Below are positions 13,519 through 57,918 of a stretch of 64,000 bases of DNA, one piece after another (within the stretch, counting starts at the first letter, position 1; each line of letters opens with the position of its first letter). The translations under genes and the position numbers were made by a program. This DNA is from Ottowia beijingensis (GTDB taxonomy: Bacteria > Pseudomonadota > Gammaproteobacteria > Burkholderiales > Burkholderiaceae_C), in NCBI RefSeq assembly GCF_013423955.1, contig NZ_JACCKX010000001.1, positions 1,178,001 to 1,242,000 on the forward strand, written 5' to 3'. The notes below the pieces were generated by a model. That model did no database searches and had not been told where the DNA came from. It saw only the letters and a list, made by a program, of their open reading frames with translations.

Positions 13519-13578
13519 ATACCCCCACCATGCCGGCCGCCAGCGCCCGTCAACAGGGCGCTAGAGGCACATACTCCC
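13519..13578 (-). repeat. Paired-box element 1 (GGGAGTAT x2, 52 bp apart)
   Basis: Seen on the minus strand. ATACTCCC at 13571-13578 is a perfect box; ATACCCCC at 13519-13526 is a degenerate one, 52 bp away. Between them lies the hairpin CAGCGCCC-GTCAACA-GGGCGCT at 13541-13562. It lies between the convergent htrA and tatC. Confidence 0.7.
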
Positions 13579-13621
13579 TTATATTTTCATCCGGGCGCTG
13601 AAACGCCCGCGCTGCCGGCGC

Positions 13622-14424
13622 TCAGGTCTTGGCGGCCGGTTCGGCCTCGTCCTCGGGCCGCTTGGTGTGCTTGATGAACAGCCGCGCCGCCCAGATGCCG
13701 ACCTCGTACAAGAGGCACATGGGAATGGCCAGCGCCAGCTGCGACACCACGTCGGGCGGCGTGACGATGGCGGCGATGACGAAGGCCAGCACGATGAAGT
13801 AGCCGCGGAAGCTCTTGAGCTGCTCGATGCTCACCACGCCCAGGCGCGCCAGCACCACCACGGCGATCGGCACCTCGAACGCCATGCCGAAGGCCAGGAA
13901 CATGGTCAGCACGAAGCTGAGATAGGCCTCGATGTCCGGCGCCGCCGTCACGCTTTGCGGCGCGAACTTCTGGATGGTCGAGAACACCGTGCCGAACACG
14001 AAGTAATAGCTGAACGCCACGCCGACGAAGAACAGGATGGTGCTGGACACCACCAGCGGCAGCACCAGCTTCTTCTCGTGCGAATACAGCCCCGGCGCCA
14101 CGAAGGCCCACACCTGGTACAGCACCACCGGCAGCGCGATCAGGAAGGCGGCCATCAGCAGCACCTTGATCGGCACCATGAAGGGCGAGATGACCGAGGT
14201 GGCGATCACCGTCGCCCCTTGGGCAGGTGCGCCACCAGCGGCGCGGCCAGCAGGTCGTACAGCGAGTTCGCGCCCGGGTAGATCGCCAGCACCACCGCCA
14301 CCACGCCGATGGCCACGACGGAGCGGATCAGCCGATCGCGCAGCTCCATGAGGTGCGTGACGAAGGGCTGCTCGGTGCCGGCCAGTTCGTCTTCGGGGTC
14401 GGTCTTGGGCTTGGGATCGGTCAT
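13622..14424 (-). CDS. tatC: TatC, twin-arginine translocase receptor subunit (one frame break)
   Basis: The six-span membrane subunit that recognises twin-arginine signal peptides. The start at 14424 reads MTDPKPKTDPEDELAG, then the conserved cytoplasmic motif TEQPFVTHLMELRDRLIRS. The frame breaks near 14215: LVAHLPKG should continue ATVIATSVISPF, needing one base. Helices LLMAAFLIALPVVLYQVWAF and the rest follow; the tail is acidic. Repaired length is 267 residues. It ends the tatABC group, which probably serves the Tat-type Rieske protein among others. Confidence 0.95.
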
Positions 14425-14555
14425 GGAACAGCGATTGTCGCCTGTGTGGCGATGACAAGATGACTTGGCCTTTGGCGCGGCCTCGATGACGGAATGACTT
14501 GCGCTGCCCGAGCCCGAGGTGCCGTCACCGAAGGCCGCGGGCCGGGGTCATGTCG

Positions 14556-15041
14556 TCATTTGGGCTTCGGGCGATAGCGGGCCACCCGTGCCGCACCCGA
14601 CTGCACCTGCCGGCGCACGCCGTGGCGCGCCTTGTACCACTGCGGCGTGGCGCCGCGCTTGAGGCGCCAGTTCTTGTTGGGGCGGCGGTATTCGGGCGGC
14701 GGCGGCTCCCAGGTGGAGGACGTGGTGCTGCCGTCGCTGCTGCTGCCCGCGCCTTCCAGGCCCGCGGTGACGTCGGACCAGTCCTTCTCGAAGTCGGCCT
14801 TGGTGGAGTAGATGCCTTTTTCAACCTCGCGGCCGGCTTCTTCCACCGATTCCTTCATCTTCTTGAGTTCGTCCAGGTCCATGGCGCGGTTGACCTCGGC
14901 CTTGACGTCGGACACGTAGCGCTGCGCCTTGCCCAGCAGCGTGCCCACCGTGCGGGCCACGCGCGGCAGCTTCTCGGGGCCGATGACGATCAGCGCCACG
15001 GCGCCGATCAGCGCCATCTTGGAAATGCCAAGGTCAAGCAT
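14556..15041 (-). CDS. tatB: TatB, twin-arginine translocase subunit
   Basis: A 161-residue protein with an N-terminal span starting [20 protein letters not shown], the GPEKLPR motif of the hinge, and an amphipathic helix [21 protein letters not shown] long acidic coiled region and a basic tail follow. TatB passes substrate from TatC to the TatA pore. It lies between tatA and tatC. Confidence 0.95.
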
Positions 15042-15122
15042 GGATGGGAATCTCTAACCCGCAGCGGCACCGCGCTCGCGCGGCAACTGCTCGATTCGGC
15101 CGCAGACCGAATCGAGGGTGCG

Positions 15123-15359
15123 TCAGGATTTTTCCTTGGCCTGCACGTCGATGGTTTCCTTGGCCGCGGCGGCGTTGGTCACCTGGCCGGCGGGCGGCTG
15201 GTTGGCATCGGCCTCGGCGGCGCCGTCCTTCATGCCGTCCTTGAAGCCCTTGACGGCGCCGCCCAGGTCGGAGCCGATGTTCTTGAGTTTCTTGGTGCCG
15301 AAGATCATGACCACGATCAGCAGAACGATCAGCCAGTGCCAGATGGAAAAGGTACCCAT
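15123..15359 (-). CDS. tatA: TatA, twin-arginine translocase pore subunit
   Basis: A 78-residue protein opening [20 protein letters not shown], a single membrane span, then [20 protein letters not shown], the amphipathic helix that lines the translocation site. The tail is charged and variable. It is first in tatABC and follows hinT by about 90 bases. Confidence 0.95.
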
Positions 15360-15448
15360 GGTGTTGCTCCTTGCGCCGGTGAAAGATTTGGCGCGGTTGA
15401 TTCGATTTTAGACGGTGGGGGTGCTCGGGGTTCCTTGCGGCCTCAGGG

Positions 15449-15817
15449 TCAACCCTTCAGCCACGGGCGCGGGCCGCCCATCACGTGCATGTGCAGGTGG
15501 TGCACCTCCTGCCCGCCCTGGGCGCCGGTGTTCACCACGATGCGGAAGCCGCCATCCGGATAGGGCTCGCAGCCCCGCTCCAGCGCCAATTTGGGCGCCA
15601 GCGCCATGATGCGGCCCAGCAGCGCCTCGTGCTCAGGGCCCACGTGCGCCATCGACGCGATGTGCGCCTTGGGCACGATCAGAAAGTGCACCGGCGCCCA
15701 GGGGTTGATGTCGTGGAAGGCGTACAGCTCATCGTCCTCGTACACCTTTTTCGACGGAATCTGTCCGGCAACGATCTTGCAGAAGATGCAGGCCGGGTCT
15801 TGTGGGTGGGTGGTCAT
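15449..15817 (-). CDS. hinT: HinT-like HIT-family nucleotide hydrolase
   Basis: A 122-residue histidine-triad protein that hydrolyses AMP-linked substrates. It opens with CIFCKIVAGQIPSKKVYEDD, and the catalytic triad is in VHHLHMHVMGG near the C-terminus. The start at ATG 15817 (MTTHPQDPACIFC) is preferred over an upstream ATG because family proteins begin close to the CIFC motif. It lies upstream of tatA, the usual position in this order. Confidence 0.93.
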   Translation of the reverse strand: MTTHPQDPACIFCKIVAGQIPSKKVYEDDELYAFHDINPWAPVHFLIVPKAHIASMAHVGPEHEALLGRIMALAPKLALERGCEPYPDGGFRIVVNTGAQGGQEVHHLHMHVMGGPRPWLKG

Positions 15818-15840
15818 GCGGCAAAGCTTGGGTGAAGGGG

Positions 15841-16883
15841 TCAGCCCCGAGTATGGCGGACTTCCTCGACACTGGAGCACACGCCGATGTCGTCGTAATG
15901 CTGCGCCAGCCAGTACTGCCCGGCACCGCGCCCCAGCTCGAACAGGCGGCGCAGAAAGGCCATGTCGGCGCGCGCCTTGCTGGCCGCGCCGTGCTCGGCC
16001 AGCGCCGCGCCGCCGTCCACGCGGTGCAGCAGCACGTTCTTGTAGCGCTCGGGGTCCAGCCGGCCTTCGGCCAGCAGGCGCGAGACGAAGGCCATGGCGC
16101 GCATCTCGGCCAGCAGCGGCGCGTTGAAGGTGATCTCGTTCACGCGCTCCATGATGTCGGCCGCGCTGGCGCCGGGGGTGTGGCTCGATTCGATGGGGTT
16201 GATCTGCACCAGAATCACGTCGGCGCTCTTGGTCTCGTAGATCAGCGGGTAAATGGCGGGGTTGCCCGAATATCCGCCGTCCCAGTAGTACTCGCCCTCC
16301 ACCTGCACCGCCTGGAACAGGGTGGGCAGGCAGGCCGAGGCCATCACCGCGTCAACCGACAGGCGTTTGCCGCTGAAAATTTCACCACGCCCGGTGCGCA
16401 CGTTGGTGGCGGCCACGAAGACCTTCATGCTCCGCGTGCGCGGCGGGCGCGCCAGCAGCTCGAAATCAACCTCGCGCTTGAGCAGGTCGCGCAACGGGTT
16501 GAGCCCAAAGGGGTTGGCCTGGTAGGGCGAAAACCATTGCGCGAACCACGAGCCCATGGCCTGCGTCGCGGCCAGCGGCAGGCCGCTGGTGAAGGCGCCC
16601 ATCACGCCCACGCCGTCCCAAAGCGCGACAGCGCCGCGCGCGCGGCCTCGTTCACGTCCTGGCCGCGCTGGCCGTCGGCGCGGGCACGCGCCAGCGCGTG
16701 CGCCAGCACCACGGCGTTCATGGCGCCGGCGCTGGTGCCGCTGGCGGCCTCGAAGCGCACGCGCCCGTCTTCCAGCAGCGCGTCGAGCACGCCCCAGGTG
16801 AAGGCGCCGTGCGAGCCACCGCCCTGCAGGGCCAGGTTCACGGTCTTGTGGGCCGCAGGGCGGCCATTGCCATTCTTTGCCAT
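15841..16883 (-). CDS. Patatin-like phospholipase (one frame break)
   Basis: A serine acyl hydrolase of the bacterial patatin family. The oxyanion motif is in LALQGGGSHGAFTWGVL, the nucleophile serine in GTSAGAMNA, and the catalytic aspartate in YYWDGGYSGNPA. The frame breaks near 16617: ALSRFGTAW should run into LWDGVGVMGAFTSG with one added base. Repaired length is 347 residues. The C-terminal region includes helical segments ending at EEVRHTRG. The lipid substrate is unknown. The gene sits between the DUF4870-like gene and hinT, an uncommon addition to an otherwise conserved row. Confidence 0.88.
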
Positions 16884-16982
16884 GTTCTTGTTCGGTGCTT
16901 GAAGCGTCGCCGGCGGCCCTTGTGAACCGTGGCCGCCGGCGAGCGAGGGGACAGGGCCGCCGACGCGGCCCGAGGGAAAGGT

Positions 16983-17398
16983 TTACGCGATCACCGCGCG
17001 GCCGGCGTTCATGCGCACCATGCCCTTGACGATGCGGTAGAGGAACCAGATCGAAATGACGATCCAGGCCGGGTTGAACAGGAACAGGCCCAGCAGGAAG
17101 AACGGAAAGGTGACCAGGTACAGCACGCCGGCCCACAGCACCGAGCGGATGCGCCACTTGAAATGGCTCTCCTGCCAGGTGCCGGCGGCGTCGTCCTTCT
17201 TCACCAGGTCCATCACCAGCGCGATGATGAGCAGCGCGATGCTGACCTGCGCGCCGGGCACCACGGCGGCCACGGCCACGATCAGGTGCAGGACGTAGCT
17301 GACCCAGCCCCAGGTCTTGAACGAATCGGCGGCCCGGCCGCCACCGCGGTGCCGCGGCCGTTGATGGGTTCCACGTCAATGATGTCGTTGTTGCGCAT
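16983..17398 (-). CDS. Small multi-span membrane protein, DUF4870-like (one frame break)
   Basis: Read from ATG 17398 (MRNNDIIDVEPINGRG) the frame breaks near 17340; one added G restores DSFKTWGWVSYVLHLIVAV and gives 138 residues. Three or four hydrophobic spans follow, including VSIALLIIALVMDLV and LYLVTFPFFLLGLFLFNPAW, with a polar loop KKDDAAGTWQESHFKWRI. This layout and the W-x(2)-SHF-x-W pattern resemble DUF4870 proteins. The function is unknown. It is commonly found next to hisE in Burkholderiales, as here, 23 bases downstream. Confidence 0.75.
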
Positions 17399-17421
17399 GA
17401 GCCAGCTCCTTTCAGTGCGGT

Positions 17422-17784
17422 TCATTCAGCCTCGCGCTCGCGCACCTTGCGCAGCGCTTTTTCTTCTATGCCTGAGAGTCCCTCGCGGCGCGCCAGTTCC
17501 GCCACCACGTCGGCGGCGGACAGGCCGTAATGCGCCAGCGCCACCATGCCGTGGAACCACAGGTCGGCCATCTCGGCGACGATCTTCTCGCGCGGGCCGC
17601 CGTGGTCGGCGTCCTTGGCGGCCATCACCACCTCGGTGGCTTCCTCGCCGATCTTCTTCAGGAAAGCGTCCGGCCCCTTGTGCAGCAGGCGCGCGACGTA
17701 GCTCTTGTCGGGGTCGCCGCCAGCGGAAGGCTTGCGGCTGTCGATGACGGCCGTGAGGCGCGCCAGGGTGTCGTCAGAGGACAT
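17422..17784 (-). CDS. hisE: HisE, phosphoribosyl-ATP pyrophosphatase
   Basis: A 120-residue MazG-fold enzyme catalysing the second step of histidine synthesis, PR-ATP to PR-AMP. The helical core has [20 protein letters not shown] and [12 protein letters not shown] with the acidic metal ligands, and [18 protein letters not shown]. HisE and HisI are separate proteins here, the usual state in betaproteobacteria. It starts 6 bases after hisI. Confidence 0.95.
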
Positions 17785-17790
17785 AGGTCG

Positions 17791-18180
17791 TTATTTGTAG
17801 ATCGACTCGGGATCTTTCAAGACCGGCTCCACCGCCTGCCAGGCGCCGTCCTTCAGCACGCTGAAGAAGCAGCTGTGGCGCCCCGTGTGGCAGGCGATGC
17901 CGGGCTCGTGCCCGAGCTGCGTCACCTTCAGCAGCACCACGTCGGCATCGCAGTCGATGCGGACTTCGTGCACCGTCTGCACGTGGCCCGACTCCTCGCC
18001 CTTGAACCAGAGCTTGCCGCGCGAGCGGCTGTAGTACACGGCGCGGCCCAGCTCGGCGGTCTTCTGCAGCGCCTCGCGGTTCATCCAGGCGAACATCAGC
18101 ACGTCGCCCGTGCCCTGCTCCTGCGCGATCACGGGCACCAGGCCCTGCGCGTCCCACTTCACTTCGTCGAGCCAGTTCAT
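17791..18180 (-). CDS. hisI: HisI, phosphoribosyl-AMP cyclohydrolase
   Basis: A 129-residue metal-dependent enzyme that opens the purine ring of PR-AMP, step three of histidine synthesis. Signature segments are [22 protein letters not shown], the metal-binding [11 protein letters not shown] and [10 protein letters not shown] with the zinc cysteine. Unlike the usual order it does not follow hisF directly: gdhA and 390 bases of repeat-bearing DNA lie between. Confidence 0.95.
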
Positions 18181-18280
18181 GTCCGCATTGTCGGTGATTC
18201 AGATGACGCGGCCGGCAAGCCGCGGCAGCGCCGCGGTCAGGTTGCCAGCAGGCAGTGCGCGCAGGCACACATCAAACATG

Positions 18281-18341
18281 GGGAGTATGCAGCGTTAGCG
18301 ACCGTCTACTGGGCGCTGGCAGCCGCTATACAGGGGAGTAT
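18281..18341 (+). repeat. Paired-box element 2 (GGGAGTAT x2, 53 bp apart)
   Basis: Perfect boxes at 18281-18288 and 18334-18341. Between them the stem is weaker than in the other copies (AGCG at 18291 against CGCT near 18314), but the segment GGGCGCTGGCAGCCGCTATA keeps the family right flank. It lies upstream of hisI. Confidence 0.75.
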
Positions 18342-18396
18342 ATGGCCACATGGCCGTCCAGAGTGTGCCCGCAGACGCACGGCATCGGGTGCCATC

Positions 18397-18510
18397 CGTC
18401 GGAATCGCTGCGCGGTTCCGACCTACCCGGCTTGCTGAATCCATCGGGATCGAATGGCCGCGGAGCAGGCCACGCCAGCGATCGCCATGGCCGGGCTTGC
18501 ACCGGCCATC
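18397..18510. repeat. Two REP-like palindromes between gdhA and hisI
   Basis: GTCGGAATCGCTGCGCGGTT at 18398 onward closes with CCGAC (the GTCGGAA-TTCCGAC type), and CATGGCCGGGCTTGCACCGG closing with CCATC lies at 18486-18510 (the GTGGCCGGACC-GGCCAC type). Both types recur, next to a transposase at 61.5-62.1 kb and at 35683 and 63274 respectively. The remainder of the 18181-18569 gap shows no gene. Confidence 0.65.
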
Positions 18511-18569
18511 GGCGATGCCCCTCGAGGGGGTGGCGAAACAACGCGAAGCGTGTGCAGCCTGGGGGTGGG

Positions 18570-19897
18570 CTACAGCACGCCCTGCGCCAGCATGGCGTCG
18601 GCGATCTTCACGAAGCCGGCGATGTTGGCGCCTTCCACGTAATTCACCGTGCCGTCGCTGCGCTCGCCGTGGCGAACGCAGTTGCCGTGGATGTCCTTCA
18701 TGATCTCGTGCAGGCGCAGGTCGACCTCGCTGTGCGTCCACGACAGGCGCATGGCGTTCTGGCTCATCTCCAGGCCCGAAGTGGCCACGCCGCCGGCGTT
18801 GCTGGCCTTGCCGGGTGCGTACAGCGTGCCGGCCTCGAGGAAGCAGTCCACCGCCTCCAGCGTGCTGGGCATGTTGGCGCCCTCGGCCACGCACACCACG
18901 CCGTTGGCGATCAAATGCCTGGCGTCTTCGGCGTCCAGCTCGTTCTGCGTGGCGCAGGGCAGCGCGATATCGACCGGCACGTGCCAGGGGCGCTTGCCGG
19001 CCTCGAACTTCAGCTTGTGCTGCTTGGCAAAATCCTTCAGGCGGCCGCGCTGCACGTTCTTGAAATCCATCACGTCCTGCAGCATGCCTTCGCTCAGGCC
19101 GCCCTCGCACACCAGGGTGCCATCGGAGTCGGACAGGGTGACGACCTTGGCGCCCAGCTCCATCGCCTTGGCGGCGGCGTACTGCGCCACGTTGCCCGAG
19201 CCGGAGATGCTCACGGCCCGGTCCTCGAAGCCCATCTGCTTGCGCCGCAGCATCTCCTGCGCGAAGTACACCGTGCCGTAGCCAGTGGCCTCGGGCCGCA
19301 TCAGGCTGCCGCCGTAGGCGATGCCCTTGCCGGTGAACACGCTGCCGGCATCGTTGCTCAGCTTCTTCATCATGCCGGCCATGAAGCCGACCTCGCGCGC
19401 GCCCACGCCGATGTCGCCGGCGGGCACGTCGGTGTCGGCGCCCAGGTGGCGGTACAGCTCGGCCATCAGCGCCTGGCAGAAGCGCATCACCTCGCCGTCG
19501 CTCTTGCCCTTGGGATCGAAGTCGGAGCCGCCCTTGCCGCCGCCCATGGGCAGCGTGGTCAGCGCGTTCTTGAAGGTCTGCTCGAAAGCCAGAAACTTGA
19601 GGATCGACTGGTTCACGCTGGGGTGAAAGCGCATGCCGCCCTTGTAGGGGCCGATGGCCATGCTGTGCTGCACGCGGAAGGCGCGGTTGACCTGCGTCTT
19701 GCCCTTGTCGTCGACCCAGGCGACGCGGAACTGGATCACGCGGTCGGGCTCGCACAGGCGCTCCAGCAGGCCGTGTTCGCGGTACCTGGGGTGCTTCTCC
19801 AGAAACGGCCACAGCGACATCATCACTTCACGCACCGCCTGCAGGAACTCTGGCTGAAGGGGTCGCGCTGCTCGATCTGGCGCAGGAATTCATTCAT
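18570..19897 (-). CDS. gdhA: GdhA, NADP-type glutamate dehydrogenase (one frame break)
   Basis: It catalyses reductive amination of 2-oxoglutarate with ammonia. From ATG 19897 the protein opens MNEFLRQIEQRDPF, then breaks near 19860; one C restores QPEFLQAVREVMMSLWPFL. The glutamate-binding PMGGGKGGSDFDPKGKS with the catalytic lysine, GVGAREVGFMAGMMKK and the nucleotide-fold SGSGNVAQYAA follow. At 442 residues it matches the hexameric bacterial class. With gltBD in the same window it gives both routes of ammonia assimilation. Its place between hisF and hisI is atypical and repeats border it. Confidence 0.95.
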
Positions 19898-20099
19898 GCT
19901 GGCGGATGTCTTCAATGGGGGCTCCTTCGATGGGTTCGGCATGGCCATCGGCTCAGCAGACGATCATGCACCAAGTCCTCCCTGCGTTTCCTGACGGAAG
20001 ACAAAGGGCGGACGCTTTGTTTTTGATAGCGACCGGCGCTGTCTGGCGGTTGGCCAGGGGCTTATTTTGACGCAAAAAGCAGCAGCACCAGCCGCCGCG
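19898..20099. other. Intergenic gap between gdhA and hisF with a repeat fragment
   Basis: TTTTTGATAGCGACCGGCGCTGT around 20020-20044 resembles the AT-rich GATAGC/GGCGC repeat. Elsewhere in the gap I see no gene and no convincing terminator. Confidence 0.45.
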
Positions 20100-20879
<780 letters not shown>

Positions 20880-20887
20880 GGTGTGGT

Positions 20888-21637
20888 TCAGGCGGGGTCG
20901 CCGTTCAGTTCGTCGGCGCGGGCCTGCGCGGCGGCGAAGTCGAGGTCGCCGGTGTAGATGGCGCGGCCGGCGATGACGCCCTCGACGCCCTCGTCTTCCA
21001 CCGCGCACAGCGCGTCGATGTCGGCCATGTTCGACAGGCCGCCCGAGGCGATGACCGGAATGGTGGAGGCCTGCGCCAGCTTCACGGTGGCATCGATGTT
21101 GATGCCGGACAGCATGCCGTCGCGGCCGATGTCGGTGTAGATGATACTGTCGACGCCCCAGTCCTCGAACTTCTTCGCCAGGTCGCCCACCTCGTGGCCG
21201 GTCATCTTGCTCCAGCCGTCGGTGGCCACCTTGCCGTCCTTGGCGTCGAGGCCGACGATGATGTGGCCGCCGAAAGCGGTGCAGGCGTCCTTCAGAAAGC
21301 CTGGGTTCTTCACCGCCGCCGTGCCGATGATGACGTAGCGCAGGCCGGCGTCGATGTACTTCTCGATCGTGTCCAGGTCGCGGATGCCGCCGCCCAGCTG
21401 CACCGGAATCTCGTCGCCCACGGCCTTCAGGATCGCCTTGATGGCCGCCAGGTTCTGCGGCTTGCCGGCGAAGGCGCCGTTCAAATCCACCAGGTGCAGG
21501 CGGCGCGCGCCCTGCGCCAGCCAGTGCGCGGCCATGTCGGCCGGGCTTTCGCTGAAGGTGGTGACCTGGTCCATGTCGCCCTGTTTCAGGCGCACGCAAT
21601 GCCCGTCTTTCAAGTCGATGGCGGGAATGATCAGCAT
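20888..21637 (-). CDS. hisA: HisA, ProFAR isomerase
   Basis: A 249-residue TIM barrel catalysing the Amadori rearrangement of ProFAR to PRFAR. It opens [17 protein letters not shown] with the catalytic aspartate; the second-half aspartate is in [12 protein letters not shown]. Phosphate loops QLGGGIRD and IASGGLSN are present. It lies between hisH and hisF in the conserved order. Confidence 0.96.
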
Positions 21638-21721
21638 GGTGAAATGTGGATGAATTGAGGCTCAGAGGCCGTGGATATTGCGCCAGCAGCTACTGATGTT
21701 GCAGCGATCGAGGGTGGTCGA

Positions 21722-22392
21722 TCAGGGGTTCCAATGCAGGAAGTTGCGGTACAGCGCCAAGCCCTGGTCGGCGCTCTTTCAGGGTGGAACTGGGTGGCAA
21801 AAATATTATCGCGTGCCACCGCCGAGGTAAAGCGCGCGCCGTACTCGGTTTCGCCCACGCTGTGACGTGGATCAAGCGGACGGGCGTAGAAGCTGTGCAC
21901 GAAGTAGAACCATTCGCCGTCGGGCACGCCGCCCCACACCGGGTGCGGGCGGCGTTGGTGCACGCGGTTCCAGCCCATCTGCGGCACCTTGTAGCGGCTG
22001 CCGTCGGGCGCGAGCTGGCCGGCCAGGTCGAACCGGATCACCTCGCCGGCGATCAGCCCCAGGCCCGGCGTGCCGGCGGCGGTGCGGCCTTCGGCGCTGT
22101 GGTCCAGCAGCATCTGCATGCCGACGCAGACGCCGAACAGCGGCTTGGTGGCCGCGGCCTCCAGCACCGATTCGAGCAGGCCGGATTCGCGCAGTTCGCG
22201 CATGCAGTCGGCCATGGCGCCCTGCCCTGGCAGCACCACGCGGTGGGCGTCGCGCACCTGCTGCGGGCTGCTGGTGATGACGGCGTTGACGTGCGTGTCG
22301 GTGGTCGCATGGATCACCGCCTGCGCCACCGAGCGCAGGTTGCCCATGCCGTAATCGACCACGGCCACCGTCTGGTTTACTACTGAATTCAT
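21722..22392 (-). CDS. hisH: HisH, glutaminase subunit of IGP synthase (one frame break)
   Basis: A class I glutamine amidotransferase that supplies ammonia to HisF. It opens with [18 protein letters not shown]; the cysteine nucleophile is in [15 protein letters not shown], and the His-Glu pair in ATQFHPE. The frame breaks near 21780, just after FHPE; one A restores [18 protein letters not shown] and a stop at 21722, giving 223 residues. Unrepaired, the frame would run on into hisA. Confidence 0.95.
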
Positions 22393-22436
22393 AGCTGATC
22401 GCGCTTGATGGATAAGCGCTGGAGGCCTATTTGACT
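22388..22436. repeat. AT-rich hairpin repeat between hisB and hisH
   Basis: ATAGCTGATCGCGCTTGATG, then GATAAGCGCTGGAGGCCTAT and TTGACTTA. This is the clearest full copy of the AATAGC family. Its right flank GCTGGAGGCCTATTTGA closely resembles the right flank of the paired-box element at 26597 (GCTGGCGGCCTGTATGA). Confidence 0.75.
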
Positions 22437-23035
22437 TATAAAACGCCCTTGGTCGAGGGCACGGTGCCGGCCATGCGCGGGTCGGGCGTGAGCGCCATGC
22501 GCAGCGCGCGGCCGAAGGCCTTGAAGATGGTCTCGGCCTGGTGGTGGGCGTTGATGCCCTTCAGGTTGTCGATGTGCAGCGTGACGTGGGCGTGGTTGAC
22601 GAAGCCCTGGAAGAACTCGTGGATCAACTGCGTGTCGAGCTGGCCGATCATGCCGGCGGTGAACTGGGCGTTCAGCGCCAAGCCGGGGCGGCCGGAGAAG
22701 TCCACCACCACGCGCGACAGCGCCTCGTCCAGCGGCACGTAGCTGTGGCCGTAGCGGGTCAGCCCCTTCTTGTCGCCCACGGCCTGGCGCACGGCCTGGC
22801 CGATGCAGATGCCCACGTCTTCCACGGTGTGGTGGCCGTCGATGTGCAGGTCGCCCTTGCACTGCACGTCGAGGTCGATCAGGCCGTGGCGCGCGATCTG
22901 GTCCAGCATGTGGTCGAAAAAGCCGATCCCGGTGGCCAGCTTCGACTGTCCGGTGCCGTCCAGGTTGAGGGTGACGGTGATCTTGGTCTCGGCAGTATCG
23001 CGCGAAACGGTGGCGGTGCGTGCTTCAATGGTCAT
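22436..23035 (-). CDS. hisB: HisB, imidazoleglycerol-phosphate dehydratase
   Basis: A 199-residue monofunctional dehydratase (no HolPase domain), as usual outside enterics. Manganese ligands are in [24 protein letters not shown] and [11 protein letters not shown]. The start overlaps the hisC stop by four bases, consistent with translational coupling. Confidence 0.96.
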
Positions 23036-24130
23036 AGCGAGGCTTCAAGCGCGGCCAGCATCTGCGCGTTCTCGTCGGCGGTGCCCACCGTGAGACGCAC
23101 GCAGTTGGCCAGCAGCGGGTGCATTTTAGAAACGTTCTTGATCAGGACGCGGCGCGCCTTCATGCCGTCGAACGCCTTCACGGCATCAGGCACGCGCACC
23201 AGCAGCATGTTGCCTTCGCTGGGGAAGGGCATCACCCCGGGCAGCCTGGCCAGCGCGTCGATCAGCCGGGCGCGCTCGGCGCGGATGTCGGCCGCCTGCG
23301 CCGCGAACACGTCGGCGTGCTCGATGGCGAACAGCGCGCATTCGGCGTTCAACACGCTGATGTTGTAGGGCGGGCGCACCTTGTCGATTTCGGCGATCAG
23401 GCCCGCATCGCCCAGCATGTAGCCGATGCGCACGCCCGCCAGGCCGAACTTGCTGAGGGTGCGCATGACAAGCACGTGGCGGTGCTTTTCCGGCGCGGCG
23501 CGTGCGTTCTCGATCCAGCTGCGCGCGGCGAAGGGCTGGTAGGCCTCGTCCATCACCACCAGGCCGCCCTGTGCGCCCTGCGCGGCGATCAGGCGCTCGA
23601 TCACGCCCGCGTCCCACAGCGTGCCCGTGGGGTTGTTGGGGTAGGCCAGGTACAGGATGGCAGGCTTGTGCTGGGCGATGGCGGCGAGCATCGCCGCCTC
23701 ATCCAGCGCGAAGTCGGCCGTGAGCGGCACGCCGTGGAAGGCCAGGCCCTGCAGTTGCGCGCTCATCGGGTACATCACGAAGCCCGGCACCGGCGCCACG
23801 ATGCTGGCGCCCGGAATGTCGCAGGCCATGGCCAGCAGGCTGATGAGCTCGTCCGAGCCGTTGCCCAGCATCAGCGACCAGCCTTCGGGCGGCTGCGCCC
23901 AGGCGTGCAGCGCGGCCTTCAGCTCGTCGACGCGCGCGCCGGGGTAGCGGTTGATGGCGACCTCGCCGAGGCGCCGGCCCAGTTCCGCCTGCAGTTCGGG
24001 CGGCAGACGATGGGGTTCTCCATCGCGTCCATCTTCAGCATGCCGGTCGAGTCCTGTACCGCGTAGGCGTGCATGGATTGCACGTCCTGGCGGATGCGGG
24101 CGAGGGGTTGGGGGCGGTGGTTTCAGTCAT
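23032..24130 (-). CDS. hisC: HisC, histidinol-phosphate aminotransferase (two frame breaks)
   Basis: A PLP enzyme of fold type I. The lysine that binds PLP is in [15 protein letters not shown], with [10 protein letters not shown] and [10 protein letters not shown] upstream of it. From ATG 24130 (MTETTAPNP) the frame breaks near 24105 (one C restores [14 protein letters not shown]) and again near 24022 (one C restores [15 protein letters not shown]). The repaired protein is 366 residues. The ATG overlaps the end of the upstream PIN-toxin gene by 8 bases, so hisC translation may be coupled to that accessory gene. Confidence 0.93.
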
Positions 24131-24581
24131 CTGGCGTGGCGGGCAGTTGGTCGGGGCCGACAAGGTAGGGGTTGAGCACCTGCACGGTTTCGAAGCGCTG
24201 CTGGTGCGGCAGGTCTTCGCTCAGCAGGTAGCGGCAGCCCTGCTGCTGGGCCGAGGACACGATCAGCGCGTCCCAGTAGCCCAGCGCGTGGCGGTCCTGC
24301 AGCGCCCAGGCGCCGTCGATCACGTAGGTGTCGAGGTGCGGCGGCTGCCACTGGCGCAGGTTGCGCACCTGGGCGCGCGCCTGCTGCACCGGCATCACGC
24401 TGCGAAAGCGCGTGATGGCGTTGTGGTACAGCTCGTTCAGCACCTGGGTGCTGATGCGGCCGGCGCGCTGCGTCCAGCACCAGCGCAGCCATTCGCGCGC
24501 ACGCGCCTGGCGGTCCGGGTCGCGGTCGTCGGCGGTGCGCAGCAGCACCGGGGTGTCGACGAAGACCAAGGGCGCGGTCAT
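24123..24581 (-). CDS. PIN-domain ribonuclease toxin (VapC-like)
   Basis: A 152-residue PIN-fold protein. Acidic residues for metal binding fit the family: Asp9 (PLVFVDTPVL), Glu50 (STQVLNELYHN), Asp104 (GYWDALIVSSA) and Asp123 (LSEDLPHQQ). Such proteins are usually RNA-cleaving toxins. It overlaps the ribbon-helix-helix antitoxin gene by 4 bases (ATGA) and overlaps hisC at its other end. Target RNA is unknown. Toxin assignment rests on the fold and the pairing. Confidence 0.85.
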   Translation of the reverse strand: MTAPLVFVDTPVLLRTADDRDPDRQARAREWLRWCWTQRAGRISTQVLNELYHNAITRFRSVMPVQQARAQVRNLRQWQPPHLDTYVIDGAWALQDRHALGYWDALIVSSAQQQGCRYLLSEDLPHQQRFETVQVLNPYLVGPDQLPATPDD

Positions 24582-24796: not shown

Positions 24797-24809
24797 GGGG
24801 CGCGAGTTT

Positions 24810-24840
24810 ACACGAAATTCGTGTTGCACGAATTTCGTGT
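24810..24840 (-). promoter_or_regulatory. Double palindromic operator of the toxin-antitoxin pair
   Basis: ACACGAAATTCGTGT at 24810-24824 is a 7-bp dyad around one base, and CACGAATTTCGTG at 24827-24839 is a second dyad of the same half-site CACGAA. The two centres are 16 bases apart, about one and a half helical turns. This fits cooperative binding of ribbon-helix-helix dimers and autoregulation from a minus-strand promoter, which I cannot place exactly. Confidence 0.8.
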
Positions 24841-26150: not shown

Positions 26151-26153
26151 CCC

Positions 26154-26596: not shown

Positions 26597-26657
26597 GGGA
26601 GTATGCCTTGCCAGCGCCCGTCAGACGGGAGCTGGCGGCCTGTATGATGGGGAGTAT
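26597..26657 (+). repeat. Paired-box element 3 (GGGAGTAT x2, 53 bp apart)
   Basis: Perfect boxes at 26597-26604 and 26650-26657. Hairpin CCAGCGCCCGT-CAG-ACGGGAGCTGG at 26611-26635 has an 11-bp stem with one mismatch. It lies between the convergent immunity gene and FAD oxidoreductase gene. Confidence 0.85.
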
Positions 26658-29870: not shown

Positions 29871-29931
29871 ATACTCCCCTCATACCCATCCGCCAGCGCC
29901 TGACCATCAAGCGCTGACGGCATATACCCCT
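29871..29931 (-). repeat. Paired-box element 4 (53 bp spacing, one degenerate box)
   Basis: ATACTCCC at 29871-29878 is perfect; ATACCCCT at 29924-29931 is degenerate, exactly 53 bp on. The hairpin CAGCGCCTGACCATCAAGCGCTG at 29894-29916 is the inverse of the GCGCTTGATGG core of the AT-rich family. It lies between the convergent flavodoxin and hisD genes. Confidence 0.75.
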
Positions 29932-32812: not shown

Positions 32813-32872
32813 GGGAGTATATGCCTTCAGCGCCCGTCAGCCGGGCGCTGGCGAACAGGATAAAGGGAGTAT
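32813..32872 (+). repeat. Paired-box element 5 (GGGAGTAT x2, 52 bp apart)
   Basis: Perfect boxes at 32813-32820 and 32865-32872. The hairpin CAGCGCCCG-TCAGC-CGGGCGCTG at 32828-32850 is a perfect 9-bp stem, the best of the family. It lies between the convergent hypothetical gene and hisG. Confidence 0.87.
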
Positions 32873-46979: not shown

Positions 46980-47185
46980 GGGGAATGCTGGTTGCGTGCG
47001 GGGCCGGGGCGGCCGGGTCATCAATGGCAGGCTGGCGCGCGGGGCGCCGGCGGGCCGCTGGATTATGTCTGAGCGGGGGTGGGGTGCGGGCCGGAAGCCG
47101 GCGCCGCGGGCGGCCTGGCGGGCGGGTTGGGCGGTGGTGGACACGGCTTGGGCCGTGATCAGGCACCGCGCGGGCGGTGCGCCGC

Positions 47186-47340
47186 CATCGCGGCCAAGGC
47201 CGCTCCCACAGGGGCTGGGCGGTGGCCGCTGGGGGCCTGAACAAGCGATAACGGATTGGTGCGGCGAACTGGTTTGAAAAGAATAGCTGCTTGCGCCTGA
47301 TGGACGGGCGCAAAAGCAAATTATTGATTGGCAAAAAATT
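47186..47340. repeat. REP-like unit and AT-rich repeat upstream of ddh
   Basis: CATCGCGGCCAAGGCCGCTC with CCACAG at 47186-47211 is a single unit of the GGAGCGG type. AATAGCTGCTTGCGCCTGAT at 47282 onward with GGACGGGCGCAAAAGCAAAT is an AT-rich family copy. The stretch 46980-47185 shows no gene. Confidence 0.6.
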
Positions 47341-47640
47341 TCGGAAGTCCCCCGTTTGCCGCACCGATGAGGCGGGTCGCTGACATCCGTCAGCAATTCA
47401 TCGGCGGCGCGCGCTGCCTGGCGACCTTCTTGCCACGCACGCGGTCAGCGTGCAGGTCGTCATGCCGCCCGCCGGGCGATCAGGAGGGCCGCACCCTAAC
47501 GCCTCAACGCGGCAGGTCGCTTGAACCCATCAGGAACTCATCCACCGCACGCGCGGCCTGGCGGCCCTTCCCTGCACGCGGTCAGCGTGCAGGTTGTCAC
47601 GCCGCCCGCCGGGCGATCAGGAGGGCCGCGCCCCGACGCC

Positions 47641-49130
<1,490 letters not shown>

Positions 49131-49154
49131 GATGTTTCTCTCTTCAATGTTCTT

Positions 49155-49601
49155 TCAGCCCGCGACCACGCGCGGCTCGCAGCGCACGTCGGTCTTGACG
49201 GAGTTGGCGATGAAGCATTCCTCGTGCGCTTCGTGGTGCATGGCGGCGATGTCGCCCGCGTTCGGCAGGCGCTCGCCCGAGAACCACACGGCCGGCCGCA
49301 GCGTGACCACGGTCATCGCCATGCGGCGCTCGGCGTTGCGCGCCATCACGCCCTCGGCGGCGTCCTCGTAGCGGTCGACGCAGAAACCGCGCTGGGCCGC
49401 GATGGACAGGAACCACAGCATGTGGCAGCTGGCCAGGGCGGCGACAAAGGCCTCCTCGGGGTCGACCGCCGACGCGTCCGACCACGGCAGCGGCACCACG
49501 TGTGGCGACGAGGAGCCGGGCAGTTCCACCCCCATCGAAGCGGATCAGGTGGCGGCGGCTGTAGCGGTTGGACAGGAAATCCTGCCCCTCTCGCTCCCAC
49601 G

Positions 49602-49626
<25 letters not shown>
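49155..49626 (-). CDS. OsmC/Ohr-family peroxide-related protein (frame break)
   Basis: It opens [20 protein letters not shown]; the frame breaks near 49530 in a run of G, where two bases restore [20 protein letters not shown]. The body has [20 protein letters not shown] with the first active cysteine, and the second lies in [17 protein letters not shown]. OsmC-type proteins reduce organic hydroperoxides with a cysteine pair. Repaired length is 157. It is wedged between gltB and gltD with tight spacing, so it is co-transcribed with them. Confidence 0.85.
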
Positions 49627-54412
<4,786 letters not shown>

Positions 54413-54600
54413 CGCTCTATTCCATCCATCAGATCAATTCCGGAAGCGCGAGCATAGTGCACTGCAACATCGTCGCCAAGTTTTTAATTGGGGTCAGATC
54501 AAAATTAAATTGCCAGATTGAATGAATCAGAATAATAAGGGACATATCAAATAACGTAGCGCCAAGTGAAACACTGACGAGCCTCAATGCCCCGTTTGAA
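54413..54600. other. AT-rich gap between gltB and the transposase, with a GGGGTCAGATC tag
   Basis: GGGGTCAGATCAAAATTAAA at 54490-54509 lies on the 3' side of the transposase gene. I have met this tag beside many REP-type transposase genes. The gap is markedly richer in AT than its surroundings. It probably also carries the gltB promoter, which I cannot place. Confidence 0.5.
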
Positions 54601-55296
54601 TCAGTTTTCCGCCGGCTTGGGCGGCCGCCCTGCGGCGGCACGCGCGACCCGGCGTTCGGTGCGGCGCTGCAGCTCGGCGATGAAATCCGCCCCGCCCAAC
54701 GCCCAGCCGCTGTGGGCAGCGCGCGTCAATGCGGTCATCTGGTCCGGGTTCAGGCCGGCGCCCACCATCTCGGCATAGGCGCGCTCGCGCGCGAACGGCG
54801 TGTTGCCCAGTTGCCAGTACAGCGGATGGGGCGTGATGAGCGGGTCCGTCCGCAGGCCGATGTGGTGCCCATGACTCGACCAGGGATAGTCCTGCGGCCG
54901 CGCCACCATGCCGGCGCGCACGGGGTTCAGGTCGATGTAGGCCATGCAGGCCAGCAGATGGCGCTCGGCCTCAATCACGGTGCTGCGGTAGCGCCCTTCC
55001 CACATCGTGCCGCTGCGGCCATGCCGGCGGTTGAACCAGCGCACGTAGCCGCGACCCACGCCCTGCATCATCAAGGGCAGGCTGTCGCCGGCCTCGGGCG
55101 TGACCAGCAGGTGCAGGTGGTTGCTCATCAGCACATAGGCGTGCACCGCCACCCCATGTGCGCGGGCGTGCTCGGCCAGGTCGTCCAGCAGGCGCTGGCG
55201 GTCGGCGTCGTCGACCACGATGGGCTGCCGGTTGTTGCCACGCTGGATGACGTGGTGCGGGTAGCCGGGAACCGTGAGGCGGGGCAGGCGGGACAT
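54601..55296 (-). CDS. REP-associated tyrosine transposase (Y1/HUH, RAYT-like) no. 1
   Basis: A 231-residue single-strand transposase-like protein. The start MSRLPRLTVPGYPHHVIQRG is typical, with GNNRQPIV after it. The HUH histidines are in VLMSNHLHLLVTPE; the catalytic tyrosine is in LACMAYIDLNPVRAGMV, after MWEGRYRSTVI. The C-terminal part with WALGGADFIAEL and RRTERR is basic. RAYTs act on REP palindromes, and none lies tightly against this copy. The AT-rich 3' flank and lone position suggest transfer. Confidence 0.9.
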   Translation of the reverse strand: MSRLPRLTVPGYPHHVIQRGNNRQPIVVDDADRQRLLDDLAEHARAHGVAVHAYVLMSNHLHLLVTPEAGDSLPLMMQGVGRGYVRWFNRRHGRSGTMWEGRYRSTVIEAERHLLACMAYIDLNPVRAGMVARPQDYPWSSHGHHIGLRTDPLITPHPLYWQLGNTPFARERAYAEMVGAGLNPDQMTALTRAAHSGWALGGADFIAELQRRTERRVARAAAGRPPKPAEN

Positions 55297-55496
55297 GGCA
55301 AATCTTAAGCCAGCCTCGGTTTGTCGCGCGCTTTCATGCGCAGACCCGTGTTTTCCCGCATACCCCACACCGTCTGGCCCAGCGTGACAAAGTTGTGAGG
55401 CGCATCGCCCGCAAGCCGGTAGAGTCGGCGCCACTTGCTTTCAGCATCCCTTGAACCATCCGCGCGCCGTTGCGGCCGCGCCTGGGAGAACTCGAC

Positions 55497-56627
55497 ATGA
55501 AGAAACTGTGGTATTGGGCCGCGTCGGCCCTGCTGGCGCTGCCCCTGCACATGGCCCATGCGCAGGACGTGGTGGTGGCGCACGTGGGCCCCATGTCCGG
55601 GCCGCTGGCGGGCAACGGCATCGCCAACTACGAAGGGGCCAAGGCCTACTTCGACCAGGTCAACGCCCAGGGCGGCATCAACGGCCAGAAGGTCCGCCTG
55701 GTGCGCGAGGACGACCAGTACAAGGCCGACGAAACCATCCGCCTGGTGCAGGAGGTGGCCAAGCGCGACCGCCCCGTGGCCTTCATCAACCTGCTGGGTT
55801 CGGCCAACGTCACGGCGATGTTCAAGGACAAGACGTTCGACAAGGTCGCCACGCCCTTCGTCGGCATCACCCCCGGCGCCGAGGCGCTGCGCAACCCCGG
55901 CAGCCCCTGGATGTTCCACGTGCAGGCCGGTGACCGCGCGCAGCTGCGCCGCGTGCTGACGCACCTGTCCACCATTGGGCTGAACAAGATCGCCGTGGTG
56001 TACCAGGACATCCCCTTCGGCAAGTCGGGCCTGGGCTTCGTCGACGAGATGGCGCCGGGCCTGAAGGTGGAGATTGCGGCGCGCATTGCCGCGCCCTCCG
56101 CGTCGGAGGACTTCAAGGCCGTGGCGCAGCAGCTCAAGGCCGCCAACGCCAAGACCTACCTGATGATCCTGACGCCCAACAGCGGCGCGGCCATGGTGCG
56201 CGACCTGCGCGCCGCGGGCGACCGCACGCCGATCTACAGCATGTCCTACGTACCGGCCAGCGCCATTCTGGAGAAGGCGCCGCTGAAGGACGCAGTGGGC
56301 ATCGCGCTGGCGCAGGTCACGCCCAACCCCGACGTGCCGCACACCCCGCTGAGCCGCGACTTCCGCGCCGCGATGGACAAGTTCCTGCCCGAGGTGAAGG
56401 CGCGCTCGTCGATGCAGATGATCGGCTACGTCAACGCCCGCATCGCCGGCGAGGCCATCCGCCGCGCCGGCCCCAACCCCACGCCCGACAAGGTGGCCGC
56501 CGCGCTGCGCCAGCTGCGCGTCGATCTGGGCGGCTACCTGGTCGACTTCCCGGCCAACGGCAAGAACGTCGGTGCCGAGTTCGTCGACATCGGCGTGGTC
56601 GACAGCCGCGGCAAGCTGATGTATTGA
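55497..56627 (+). CDS. Periplasmic ABC substrate-binding protein (branched-chain amino-acid type)
   Basis: A 376-residue type I periplasmic binding protein. The signal MKKLWYWAASALLALPLHMA ends near AHAQ. The mature part opens DVVVAHVGPMSGPLAGNGIA, and QGGINGQKVRLVREDDQYKA and AFINLLGSANVTAMFKDKTF match the LivJ/Peripla_BP_6 family. The ligand is unknown. It starts at ATG 55497, eight codons into the open frame, after GGGAGAA. No transporter genes accompany it, so it may be an orphan receptor or serve a transporter elsewhere. Confidence 0.92.
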   Translation: MKKLWYWAASALLALPLHMAHAQDVVVAHVGPMSGPLAGNGIANYEGAKAYFDQVNAQGGINGQKVRLVREDDQYKADETIRLVQEVAKRDRPVAFINLLGSANVTAMFKDKTFDKVATPFVGITPGAEALRNPGSPWMFHVQAGDRAQLRRVLTHLSTIGLNKIAVVYQDIPFGKSGLGFVDEMAPGLKVEIAARIAAPSASEDFKAVAQQLKAANAKTYLMILTPNSGAAMVRDLRAAGDRTPIYSMSYVPASAILEKAPLKDAVGIALAQVTPNPDVPHTPLSRDFRAAMDKFLPEVKARSSMQMIGYVNARIAGEAIRRAGPNPTPDKVAAALRQLRVDLGGYLVDFPANGKNVGAEFVDIGVVDSRGKLMY

Positions 56628-56786
56628 TCTGAGTGCAACCCTGCACCGGCCTGCGGCCGGCCAGGGCGCCCACGGGCCACAGCCGCGTGACGAAAGTCAC
56701 GCCCGGTGGCCGCTGTCATGCGGCCCCGCACCCAGGCATGGAACAGTCGCGCCGACCCGTTCATTCATCGACCGAGGGAGGCGCTC

Positions 56787-57605
56787 ATGAACACGCAGGA
56801 CATCTGGAACTTCATCACCACGCAGGGCGTGGATTTCGGCATCAAGCTGCTGACGGCCATCGTCGCCTGGATCGTCGGCCGCTGGCTGATCAACCTGGCC
56901 GTGGGCCTGATCGGCAAGGCCTTCGAGCGCGGCGGCAAGATCGACGCCACGCTGGCCAACTACCTGAAGTCGATCATCGCCATCGTGCTGAACATCGTCC
57001 TGATCCTGGCGATCCTGGACATCTTCGGCGTGCGCACCACCTCGTTCGCGGCGCTGCTGGCCGGCGCGGGCCTGGCCATCGGCGCGGCCTGGAGCGGCAT
57101 GCTGGGCAACTTCGCCGCCGGCGTGTTCATGCAGGTGCTGCGCCCCTACAAGGTGGGCGACTTCATCCAGGCCGGCGGCGTGACCGGCACGGTGAAGGAG
57201 CTGGGCCTGTTCGGCACCACCATCGTCACCATGGACAACGTGACCACCATCGTCGGCAACGGCAAGGTGTTCGGCGACAACATCCAGAACTACAGCGCCC
57301 TGCCCGTGCGCCGCGTGGACTGCGTGGCCAAGGTGGCCAACAGCGTGAACCCGATGGACGCCATCGCGCGGCTGCGCCCCGTCATTGCCGCCATCCCCAA
57401 CGTGGCGCAAGACCCGGCACCCGACATCGAGATCCTCGAGTTCACGCCCGAAGGCCCCAAGCTGTGCGTGCGCCCCTACACGCACACCGACCACTACTGG
57501 CAGGTCTATTTCGACACCCACAAGGCCATCGTCGAAACCTTCGGTGCCGCCGGCTACCCGGTGCCCGAATTGCCGGTGGCGCACCGCACGGTGACGTCGG
57601 CCTGA
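56787..57605 (+). CDS. mscS: MscS-family small-conductance mechanosensitive channel
   Basis: A 272-residue channel subunit. Three N-terminal spans end in the pore helix, with SFAALLAGAGLAIGAAWSGM and LGNFAAGVFMQVLRPYKVGD as the conserved TM3 and beta-domain entry. VTGTVKELGLFGTTIVTMDN and VGNGKVFGDNIQNYS follow. The start MNTQDIWNFITTQGVDFGI at 56787 has GAGGGAGG upstream. With mscL it supplies osmotic release; the two genes are unlinked here. Confidence 0.93.
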   Translation: MNTQDIWNFITTQGVDFGIKLLTAIVAWIVGRWLINLAVGLIGKAFERGGKIDATLANYLKSIIAIVLNIVLILAILDIFGVRTTSFAALLAGAGLAIGAAWSGMLGNFAAGVFMQVLRPYKVGDFIQAGGVTGTVKELGLFGTTIVTMDNVTTIVGNGKVFGDNIQNYSALPVRRVDCVAKVANSVNPMDAIARLRPVIAAIPNVAQDPAPDIEILEFTPEGPKLCVRPYTHTDHYWQVYFDTHKAIVETFGAAGYPVPELPVAHRTVTSA

Positions 57606-57670
57606 GCGGGCGGGGCCGGCTGCGGCGCCGAAAGCTGGCCCGTCAGCGCAGGCACGTCACGTTCTCGATG

Positions 57671-57731
57671 GGGAGTATGTGACTCCAGCGCTTACCCAAT
57701 AAGCGCTACCGTGGTGCATACAAGGGAGTAT
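57671..57731 (+). repeat. Paired-box element 6 (GGGAGTAT x2, 53 bp apart)
   Basis: Perfect boxes at 57671-57678 and 57724-57731. The hairpin AGCGCTTA-CCCAA-TAAGCGCT at 57687-57707 is a perfect 8-bp stem but differs in sequence from the others, so pairing is kept while bases change. Confidence 0.85.
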
Positions 57732-57745
57732 CTGATCCCTTCGGC

Positions 57746-57821
57746 TGTAGGAGCGGGCTTGCCCGCGATGAAGCGCCACAGTGCGCGGGCCGCCGCCATC
57801 GCGGGCAAGCCCGCTCCCACG
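57746..57821. repeat. Inverted pair of GGAGCGGGCTTGCCCGC palindromes
   Basis: TGTAGGAGCGGGCTTGCCCG at 57746-57770 faces CATCGCGGGCAAGCCCGCTC at 57797-57821. It is lodged between two paired-box elements. No gene is seen in 57606-58109. Confidence 0.85.
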
Positions 57822-57857
57822 CAGCCGCCACTCCTCGTCACGGCCGGGGCATTCATG

Positions 57858-57918
57858 GGGAGTATCGTCTTCCAGATCCCTACAGTTGGGCGCCAGCGGC
57901 ATGATTACCAGGGAGTAT
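57858..57918 (+). repeat. Paired-box element 7 (GGGAGTAT x2, 53 bp apart)
   Basis: Perfect boxes at 57858-57865 and 57911-57918. The interior has GGGCGCCAGCGGCATGATTA, the right flank of the family, but the left arm of the hairpin is worn away. Confidence 0.8.

What the first reader, a model, noticed from the sequence alone, without database searches (positions are those of the whole stretch)
13519..57918. A dispersed repeat made of two GGGAGTAT boxes held 52-53 bp apart around a changing hairpin
Seven loci in this window share one design: box GGGAGTAT, 52 or 53 bp, box GGGAGTAT in the same direction (13519/13571, 18281/18334, 26597/26650, 29871/29924, 32813/32865, 57671/57724, 57858/57911; first and fourth on the minus strand, each with one degenerate box). 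The interior sequence varies but usually forms a hairpin near CAGCGCCC...GGGCGCTG, and at 57687 the stem is rebuilt with other bases. Fixed spacing of about five helical turns between same-direction boxes is not what ordinary REPs show and suggests a protein that reads both boxes on one DNA face, or a small mobile unit with fixed ends. I know of no description of it.
Basis: seen in the sequence. Interest (0 to 1): 0.72.

Follow-up and report, generated by a model that had tools for sequence, protein, structure and literature searches.

The report
Two-box hairpin repeat between genes
A short DNA element, two like signal boxes held about five helix turns apart around a hairpin, sits behind many genes in a few related bacteria; it keeps its boxes while the rest drifts, which points to an unidentified protein that reads both boxes.

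Summary
The genome holds 98 exact GGGAGTAT pairs, all 51-53 bp apart, against 0 for the reversed pattern. Looser box patterns give 138 and 150. Copies lie behind genes, mostly between convergent ones, in either orientation.

Boxes and spacing are held tightly, while interiors differ from their consensus at 36% of sites. Copies with three box mismatches are no commoner than chance, and only 1 of 27 single mismatches falls in GTAT. Among 98 compared copies the closest pair, a local duplication, is 87% identical inside; the next pairs are 82%. Some copies sit at the same spot in sister species, boxes kept.

The same geometry recurs with other hairpins and shorter boxes (core RGTAT) in two sister species and two other Comamonadaceae genera, and is rare or absent in nearly all other relatives searched. 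A commoner hairpin repeat shares the core but has other ends.

Best reading: a two-box protein-recognition unit kept in place by selection; the protein is unknown. It is not a canonical REP, REPIN or MITE.

The parts
13519..13578 (-). two-box element; left box 13571-13578 GGGAGTAT, right box 13519-13526 GGGGGTAT, spacing 52
   Evidence: model R1 match 13513-13588, 64 bits; between convergent genes
18281..18341 (+). two-box element, both boxes perfect, spacing 53
   Evidence: four sister genomes carry the other (ATAGCT) hairpin repeat in this intergenic region
26597..26657 (+). two-box element, both boxes perfect, spacing 53; member of the closest pair among the 67 perfect 61-bp copies
   Evidence: between convergent genes
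29871..29931 (-). two-box element; left box 29924-29931 AGGGGTAT, right box 29871-29878 GGGAGTAT, spacing 53; orthologous copy in G023, G009 and G013
   Evidence: between convergent genes
32813..32872 (+). two-box element, both boxes perfect, spacing 52
   Evidence: between convergent genes
57671..57731 (+). two-box element, both boxes perfect, spacing 53; first half of an element-REPIN-element composite
57747..57820 (.). inverted pair of ordinary REPs (GGAGCGGGCTTGCCCGCG) lying between the two elements; not part of the element itself
57858..57918 (+). two-box element, both boxes perfect, spacing 53; second half of the composite

Best explanation
The element is one bipartite recognition unit of about 61-75 bp. 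Two RGTAT boxes (here GGGAGTAT, each with an AT-rich 5' side) lie about five helical turns apart, and a hairpin starts 7 nt after the left box. Shown: boxes, spacing and left-box-to-hairpin distance are held while the rest drifts, over many loci in this genome and at a few orthologous loci across species; related genomes have the same geometry with other hairpin letters. Inferred: one lineage-specific DNA-binding protein (or complex) reads both boxes together as a rigid assembly, and the sites are kept in place by selection. The most likely role is a boundary behind genes (roadblock, termination or local chromosome organisation), since copies sit at 3' ends and between convergent genes in either orientation. 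Copies probably spread in an old burst or by rare duplication; some travelled passively in transferred DNA blocks.
For: Spacing 51-53 only, though 43-63 was searched; 98 against 0 control. Box mismatches at spacing 53: 69 copies with 0, 27 with 1, 14 with 2, control 0; up to 3 mismatches gives 115 against 5 control, so no decayed tail. Interiors differ from consensus at 36% of sites, which would predict 5.8 mismatches in the 16 box bases. Only 1 of 27 single mismatches falls in GTAT, p 4e-7; 11 of 27 are left-box A4 to G. Interior length varies almost only in the right spacer (26 of 30 gap letters). Six of ten sister-species copies examined lie where this genome has a copy. At 29871, G000 against G023, G009 and G013: boxes 88-94% identical, interiors 60-64%, flanks close to shuffled level on the 5' side. 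Context: 52 convergent, 36 tandem, 2 divergent of 90; tandem copies lie nearer the upstream stop (median 75 vs 195 bp, p 0.0003); orientation neutral, 20 vs 16. Same geometry with other hairpins or boxes in G027, G026, G043, G050.
Against: No protein was found and no binding tested. Patchy distribution within one genus, from a handful of copies to over 100, is more like a mobile element than a host signal. Left and right boxes tolerate change differently, so they may not be equivalent half-sites. Stem covariation is weak here. Pairwise identities are significantly more spread than independent columns give, in G000 and G027, so the copies are not a perfect star and may differ in age. Copies with box mismatches are slightly, not significantly, further from the consensus (p 0.08), as slow decay would give. 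The context background (38 gaps, one window) is small and rests on my own simple gene caller.
Confidence: 0.45

Rival explanations
1. It is a REPIN-like non-autonomous replicator: a Y1/HUH (REP-type) or other transposase recognises boxes plus hairpin, and box conservation reflects which copies could replicate, not a host function.
For: Extragenic, many copies, hairpin dialects, patchy distribution, mosaics with true REPINs, and same-strand near-pairs: 9 of 9 within 400 bp in the G000 listings (p 0.004; one opposite-strand pair lies just outside, at 443 bp), one of them 87% identical inside. In G043 the Y1 gene lies between one intact AGGGGTAT pair and one degenerate copy. Passages of PMC6006769 name Y1 subclasses with atypical flanking structures, so a non-canonical Y1 partner is possible.
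Against: Apart from that local duplication no pair of the 98 compared copies exceeds 82%, and there is no decayed tail. The Y1 gene of the window has no box pair beside it, and relatives exist in element-poor genomes. A second Y1 gene, L187, has its own ordinary REPs. G043 is dense in elements, so flanking is weak evidence.
Confidence: 0.3
2. It is a single-strand mobile unit of IS200/IS605 type whose two cleavage sites are identical because one hairpin and one guide serve both ends.
For: Direct repeats on both sides of one hairpin, rigid left-box-hairpin distance, stem covariation in G027.
Against: No conserved guide tetranucleotide at the hairpin foot: the 7 nt between left box and stem carry only 0.2-0.6 bits each. 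Orientation does not follow local GC skew. Near-identical copies are missing.
Confidence: 0.1
3. It acts as RNA: a protein-dependent or hairpin terminator, or an mRNA 3'-end stabiliser.
For: Position behind stop codons; the sequence folds better than mononucleotide shuffles, mean z -1.2 and -1.7 on the two strands here (40 copies) and -3.1 and -3.4 in G027 (33 copies).
Against: No orientation preference relative to transcription, 20 vs 16; no terminator-like site was listed at the five elements in the stretch scanned; box order differs between the two transcripts of a convergent pair.
Confidence: 0.1
4. It is an inert old repeat whose boxes look conserved because I searched for intact boxes.
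For: The main set was chosen by perfect boxes.
Against: Relaxed searches show no decayed tail and a position-specific mismatch pattern; the geometry recurs in other species with other hairpins.
Confidence: 0.05

Closest known systems
REP / REPIN with RAYT (TnpA-REP); PMC3116915 and PMC6006769 passages, PMC8049555 abstract start in a listing
   Same: Short, extragenic, high copy number, hairpin, species-specific sequence, long-lived populations
   Different: Canonical REPs carry GTAG or GTGG 0-2 nt from the hairpin foot and REPINs are inverted doublets; here RGTAT boxes are direct repeats 53 bp apart and 7 nt from the foot. True REPINs are present in the same genome as a separate family.
Common Comamonadaceae hairpin repeat with ATAGCTGC ends (found here; no name found)
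   Same: Same stem-loop core (AGCGC..GCGCTGGMGGCC), similar size, sometimes in the same intergenic regions
   Different: Ends are CTAT-N7-ATAGCTGC and ATTTNNCTTNAAA, with no direct-repeat boxes; at least 150 copies in 9 of 20 genomes searched, including this one
BRE, Betaproteobacterial repeat element (Hot et al. 2011, PMC3110155; abstract, passages and section 14 read)
   Same: Dispersed, mostly intergenic repeat, also in Comamonadaceae
   Different: About 90 bp, sometimes in tandem arrays, mean 69% GC in Bordetella; its sequence is not in the text I could read, so no sequence comparison was possible
MITEs
   Same: Small, non-coding, dispersed
   Different: No terminal inverted repeats, no near-identical copies

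Membership tests
REP (RAYT-associated) | GTAG/GTGG tetranucleotide 0-2 nt 5' of the hairpin | tested here: not met
   Foot positions of the alignment read nCTn; nearest conserved motif is the box, 7 nt away; definition from PMC6006769 passages, which also mention atypical Y1-associated structures
REP (RAYT-associated) | high-copy, extragenic, hairpin-forming | tested here: met
   98 exact copies; 91 of 96 distinct copies overlap no called gene by more than 25 bp; stem pairing
REP (RAYT-associated) | cognate RAYT gene flanked by the element | tested here: inconclusive
   Not at the window's Y1 gene; in G043 one intact box pair and one degenerate copy flank the Y1 gene; Y1 genes of G026 and G027 not searched genome-wide
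REPIN | two REPs in inverted orientation forming one long hairpin | tested here: not met
   Boxes are direct repeats
MITE | terminal inverted repeats | tested here: not met
   Same-direction ends; no inverted ends seen in the alignment
MITE | target-site duplication / empty sites | tested here: inconclusive
   Joined-flank search over held sequences found no empty site; its four spanning hits were the filled loci themselves; intergenic flanks of sister species are too diverged
IS200/IS605-type ends | guide sequence at hairpin foot matching the cleavage site | tested here: not met
   No conserved foot sequence
Rfam RNA family | match to a curated family | tested here: not met
   No family at the elements at gathering score in the window, nor at E<=5 in five loci, two with the two-box element and three with the ATAGCTGC repeat
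BRE | sequence similarity to the Bordetella repeat | not testable with these tools
   Sequence not in the text read; alignment is a figure, list is in a supplement

The most novel reading that the evidence does not exclude
A lineage-restricted DNA-binding protein defines a genome-wide set of 3'-boundary sites in some Comamonadaceae. Each site is a rigid two-box, five-turn unit around a hairpin, its dialect (box prefix and hairpin letters) evolves species by species with the protein, and hundreds of sites can mark the gene borders of one genome.
Probability: 0.3. Interest if true: 0.82.

Novelty: new variant of a known kind. Interest (0 to 1): 0.62.

Why it matters
Small intergenic repeats are usually explained as REPs moved by a RAYT. 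This family shows conservation of two direct boxes and their distance at individual loci with little sign of recent copying, which ordinary REP dynamics do not obviously predict. If a protein is found, it would give a testable case of a repeat family that became, or always was, a set of functional gene-border sites, with species dialects as natural mutants.

Tried and rejected
Canonical REP or REPIN: rejected on tetranucleotide position and box orientation. Window Y1 transposase as the cause: not supported, since Y1 genes occur in all 8 genomes tested, including G010 with no excess of pairs. Replication-strand signal: rejected, mean local GC skew on the element strand -0.001. Short coding peptide: dropped by inspection of the listing, since copies such as 18281 have an early in-frame stop. 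Conversion of the common ATAGCTGC repeat into the two-box form at the same loci: only shared intergenic regions were seen, and at 13519 the two are in opposite orientation, so descent was not shown. Transposition into other genomes: two near-identical copies elsewhere turned out to be whole shared blocks, 1.2 kb at 99.4% (G274) and 3.8 kb at 97.2% (G015; transfer or assembly contamination, not decided). Viral contigs: 50 stretches, none with the hairpin core on inspection.
Full report
What is there. All seven loci of the finding exist. Three of the 98 are one sequence on contigs C1, C3 and C4, leaving 96 with distinct flanks: 67 at spacing 53, 28 at 52, 1 at 51. Looser patterns give 138 (GGRGTAT pairs, control 3) and 150 (GRGTAT-RGTAT, control 5).

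Anatomy. Left box GGGAGTAT, 7 variable nt, a stem of 9 pairs with a 5-nt loop (CAGCGCCCG...CGGGCGCTG), a fairly conserved GGCGG, an AT-rich stretch, right box GGGAGTAT. RTG follows the left box in 34 and the right box in 42 of 96 copies. The six nt before each box are AT-rich (0.71 and 0.66 against 0.30 further upstream). Conservation ends about 7 nt before and 3 nt after the pair. One-base length differences fall in the right spacer (26 of 30 gap letters), so left box and hairpin are the rigid part.

Where it lies. By my own simple gene caller, 90 of the 96 copies lie between two called genes: 52 convergent, 20 and 16 tandem in the two orientations, 2 divergent. Background for comparison is only the window: 6 convergent and 8 divergent of 38 gaps of 90 bp or more (Fisher p 1e-5 and 9e-4). 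Tandem copies sit nearer the upstream stop codon than the downstream start (median 75 vs 195 bp, n 36). Orientation follows neither transcription nor local GC skew. In G027 the context is less one-sided: 11 convergent, 16 tandem and 3 divergent among copies placed between two called genes.

Constraint. Interiors of the 67 perfect 61-bp copies are 52% identical on average and at most 82%. With the 31 listed one- and two-mismatch copies added (98 in all) the closest pair is 87%, two neighbours at 1937106 and 1937249, and the next pairs are 82%. Against this reading of an undivided star: identities are significantly more spread than independent columns give (sd 0.084 vs 0.067, 0 of 300 shuffles; maximum reached in 5 of 300), so some copies are nearer the consensus than others. 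Mean distance to the consensus is 36% over the 94 copies with 0 or 1 box mismatch, which would predict 5.8 changes in 16 box bases. Observed at spacing 53: 69 copies with none, 27 with one, 14 with two, and with up to three allowed 115 against 5 in the control. So there is no decayed tail. Of the 27 single mismatches, 11 are left-box A4 to G, 11 are at G1 of either box, 4 at G2 or G3 and 1 in GTAT. Copies with box mismatches are slightly but not significantly further from the consensus (p 0.08). Of the 14 two-mismatch copies only 4 were listed and used.

Orthologous copies. The 29871 copy is at the same place in G023, G009 and G013. G000 against these three: boxes 88-94% identical, with differences only at box positions 1 and 4; interiors 60-64%; the 33 nt before the element 50-56% after gapped alignment, against 47-54% for one shuffle; the 25 nt after it 30-39%. 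G023 and G009 share a second site with G000 (L236) and G013 shares one (L228); a third G013 copy lies beside the same gene as a G000 copy. In all, 6 of 10 sister copies examined (G023 2/2, G009 2/2, G013 2/4, G022 0/2) match a held G000 copy. Syntenic genes are about 80-91% identical between G000 and these species.

Distribution. Of 100 genomes including the own one, 6 have an exact pair: G000 98, G050 49, G043 19, and 2 each in G009, G022, G023. With GGRGTAT boxes, 10 of 299 family genomes have a match: G043 209, G000 138, G050 54, G013 4, G023 and G210 2, four others 1. With GRGTAT-RGTAT, 398 family genomes: G043 328 (control 4), G000 150 (5), G050 56 (1); no other exceeds 16, and most are near their control. 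Within the genus (29 genomes), at most three mismatches gives an excess in G026 (72, control 6), G007 (31, 4), G027 (21, 2) and slightly G022 (9, 2); the others are near control. G007, G026 and G027 were not drawn. So the element is patchy, in at least three genera. Ramlibacter belongs to Comamonadaceae.

Dialects. In G027 the boxes shrink to GRGTAT and RGTAT and the hairpin is TCGCCGGC...GCCGGCGA, at the same positions. In 115 kb of G027, 40 RGTAT pairs lie at spacing 53 against 0.16 per other spacing; all 11 stretches were chosen because they held hits, so the density is biased upward. In 122 kb of G026, partly N, 10 lie at 53 and 12 at 54, against 0.32 per other spacing. Eight other congeners, 118 kb together, have none at 51-55. 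Ramlibacter (G050) often uses ACCGC...GCGGT. The stem shows compensatory change in G027 (13 double changes against 6.2 shuffled, 0 of 1000 reach it) and less in G000 (30 against 20.7, 5 of 1000); pooled pairing in G000 barely exceeds shuffles (83.6 vs 82.9%, 55 of 500), and RNAalifold gave no structure. G027 interiors are 51% identical on average, at most 73%.

Relation to a commoner repeat. Congeners and G000 itself carry another hairpin repeat with the same core but ends CTAT-N7-ATAGCTGC and ATTTNNCTTNAAA. A model of it reaches its 150-hit ceiling in 9 of 20 genomes, 133 in G030, 25 in G054, 2 in G043 and 0 in 8. At windows 13519 and 18281 sister genomes have this repeat in the same intergenic region, and at 57671 G023 has a hairpin that resembles it. 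Its own stem shows no compensatory change. I found no description: four exact strings returned 0 papers.

Mobility and neighbours. Near-pairs within 400 bp are all on one strand (9 of 9 in the listings, which omit most two-mismatch copies and mismatched copies at spacing 52); the next pair, at 443 bp, is on opposite strands. One pair is clearly a local duplication (L453). In five, a REPIN-like inverted pair lies between the two copies (L218, L230, L016, window 57671/57858, L454). The Y1 transposase of the window has no box pair beside it; G043's lies between an intact AGGGGTAT pair and a degenerate copy. Y1 genes occur in all 8 genomes tested, carriers or not. Two copies in other genomes came with shared blocks.

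Judgement. Shown: real family, rigid geometry, box conservation including a few orthologous loci, dialects, patchiness. Inferred: a protein that reads both boxes, and a role at gene borders. Not settled: the protein, how copies arose, and why sisters have so few. Literature seen: PMC3110155 abstract, passages and section 14; passages of PMC2267715, PMC3116915 and PMC6006769; PMC3733652 searched by six terms without a hit; other papers only as listings. Absence from print rests only, in one open-access library.

Noticed in passing
L249-L265, L298, L304 and others; e.g. window 47268-47343: A high-copy hairpin repeat of Comamonadaceae (CTAT-N7-ATAGCTGC-hairpin-GGCC), at least 150 copies in 9 of 20 genomes searched; some copies may lie inside genes (not checked); no description found.
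   Followed up: partly
window 57671-57918; L218, L230, L016, L454: REPIN-like inverted REP pairs lie between two same-direction two-box elements, the two elements 186-199 bp apart in four cases and 354 bp in one.
   Followed up: partly
window 54601-55434, minus strand: A Y1 (REP-type) transposase gene with relatives in the seven other genomes tested, without a box pair beside it.
   Followed up: partly
L187, about 1320-1930: A second Y1 gene match, with one stop inside the matched stretch, flanked by its own REPs (TAGGAGCGGCGGAAGCCGCGA).
   Followed up: no
L238 1-1231 and L343: A 1.2-kb block 99.4% identical between this genome and a genome of another genus (G274), carrying one element: recent transfer or contamination.
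   Followed up: partly
L451 and L449: A 3.8-kb block 97.2% identical between this genome and G015, carrying one element with 1 difference in 61 bases.
   Followed up: partly
G000 contigs C1 (about 3.81 Mb), C3, C4: The same element and the same ATAGCTGC repeats occur on three contigs, so the assembly holds duplicated or redundant stretches.
   Followed up: no
L236 1000-1065, L344, L349: The element fills the gap between two same-strand genes, and its right box (GGGGAG) stands where a ribosome-binding site for the next gene could be.
   Followed up: no
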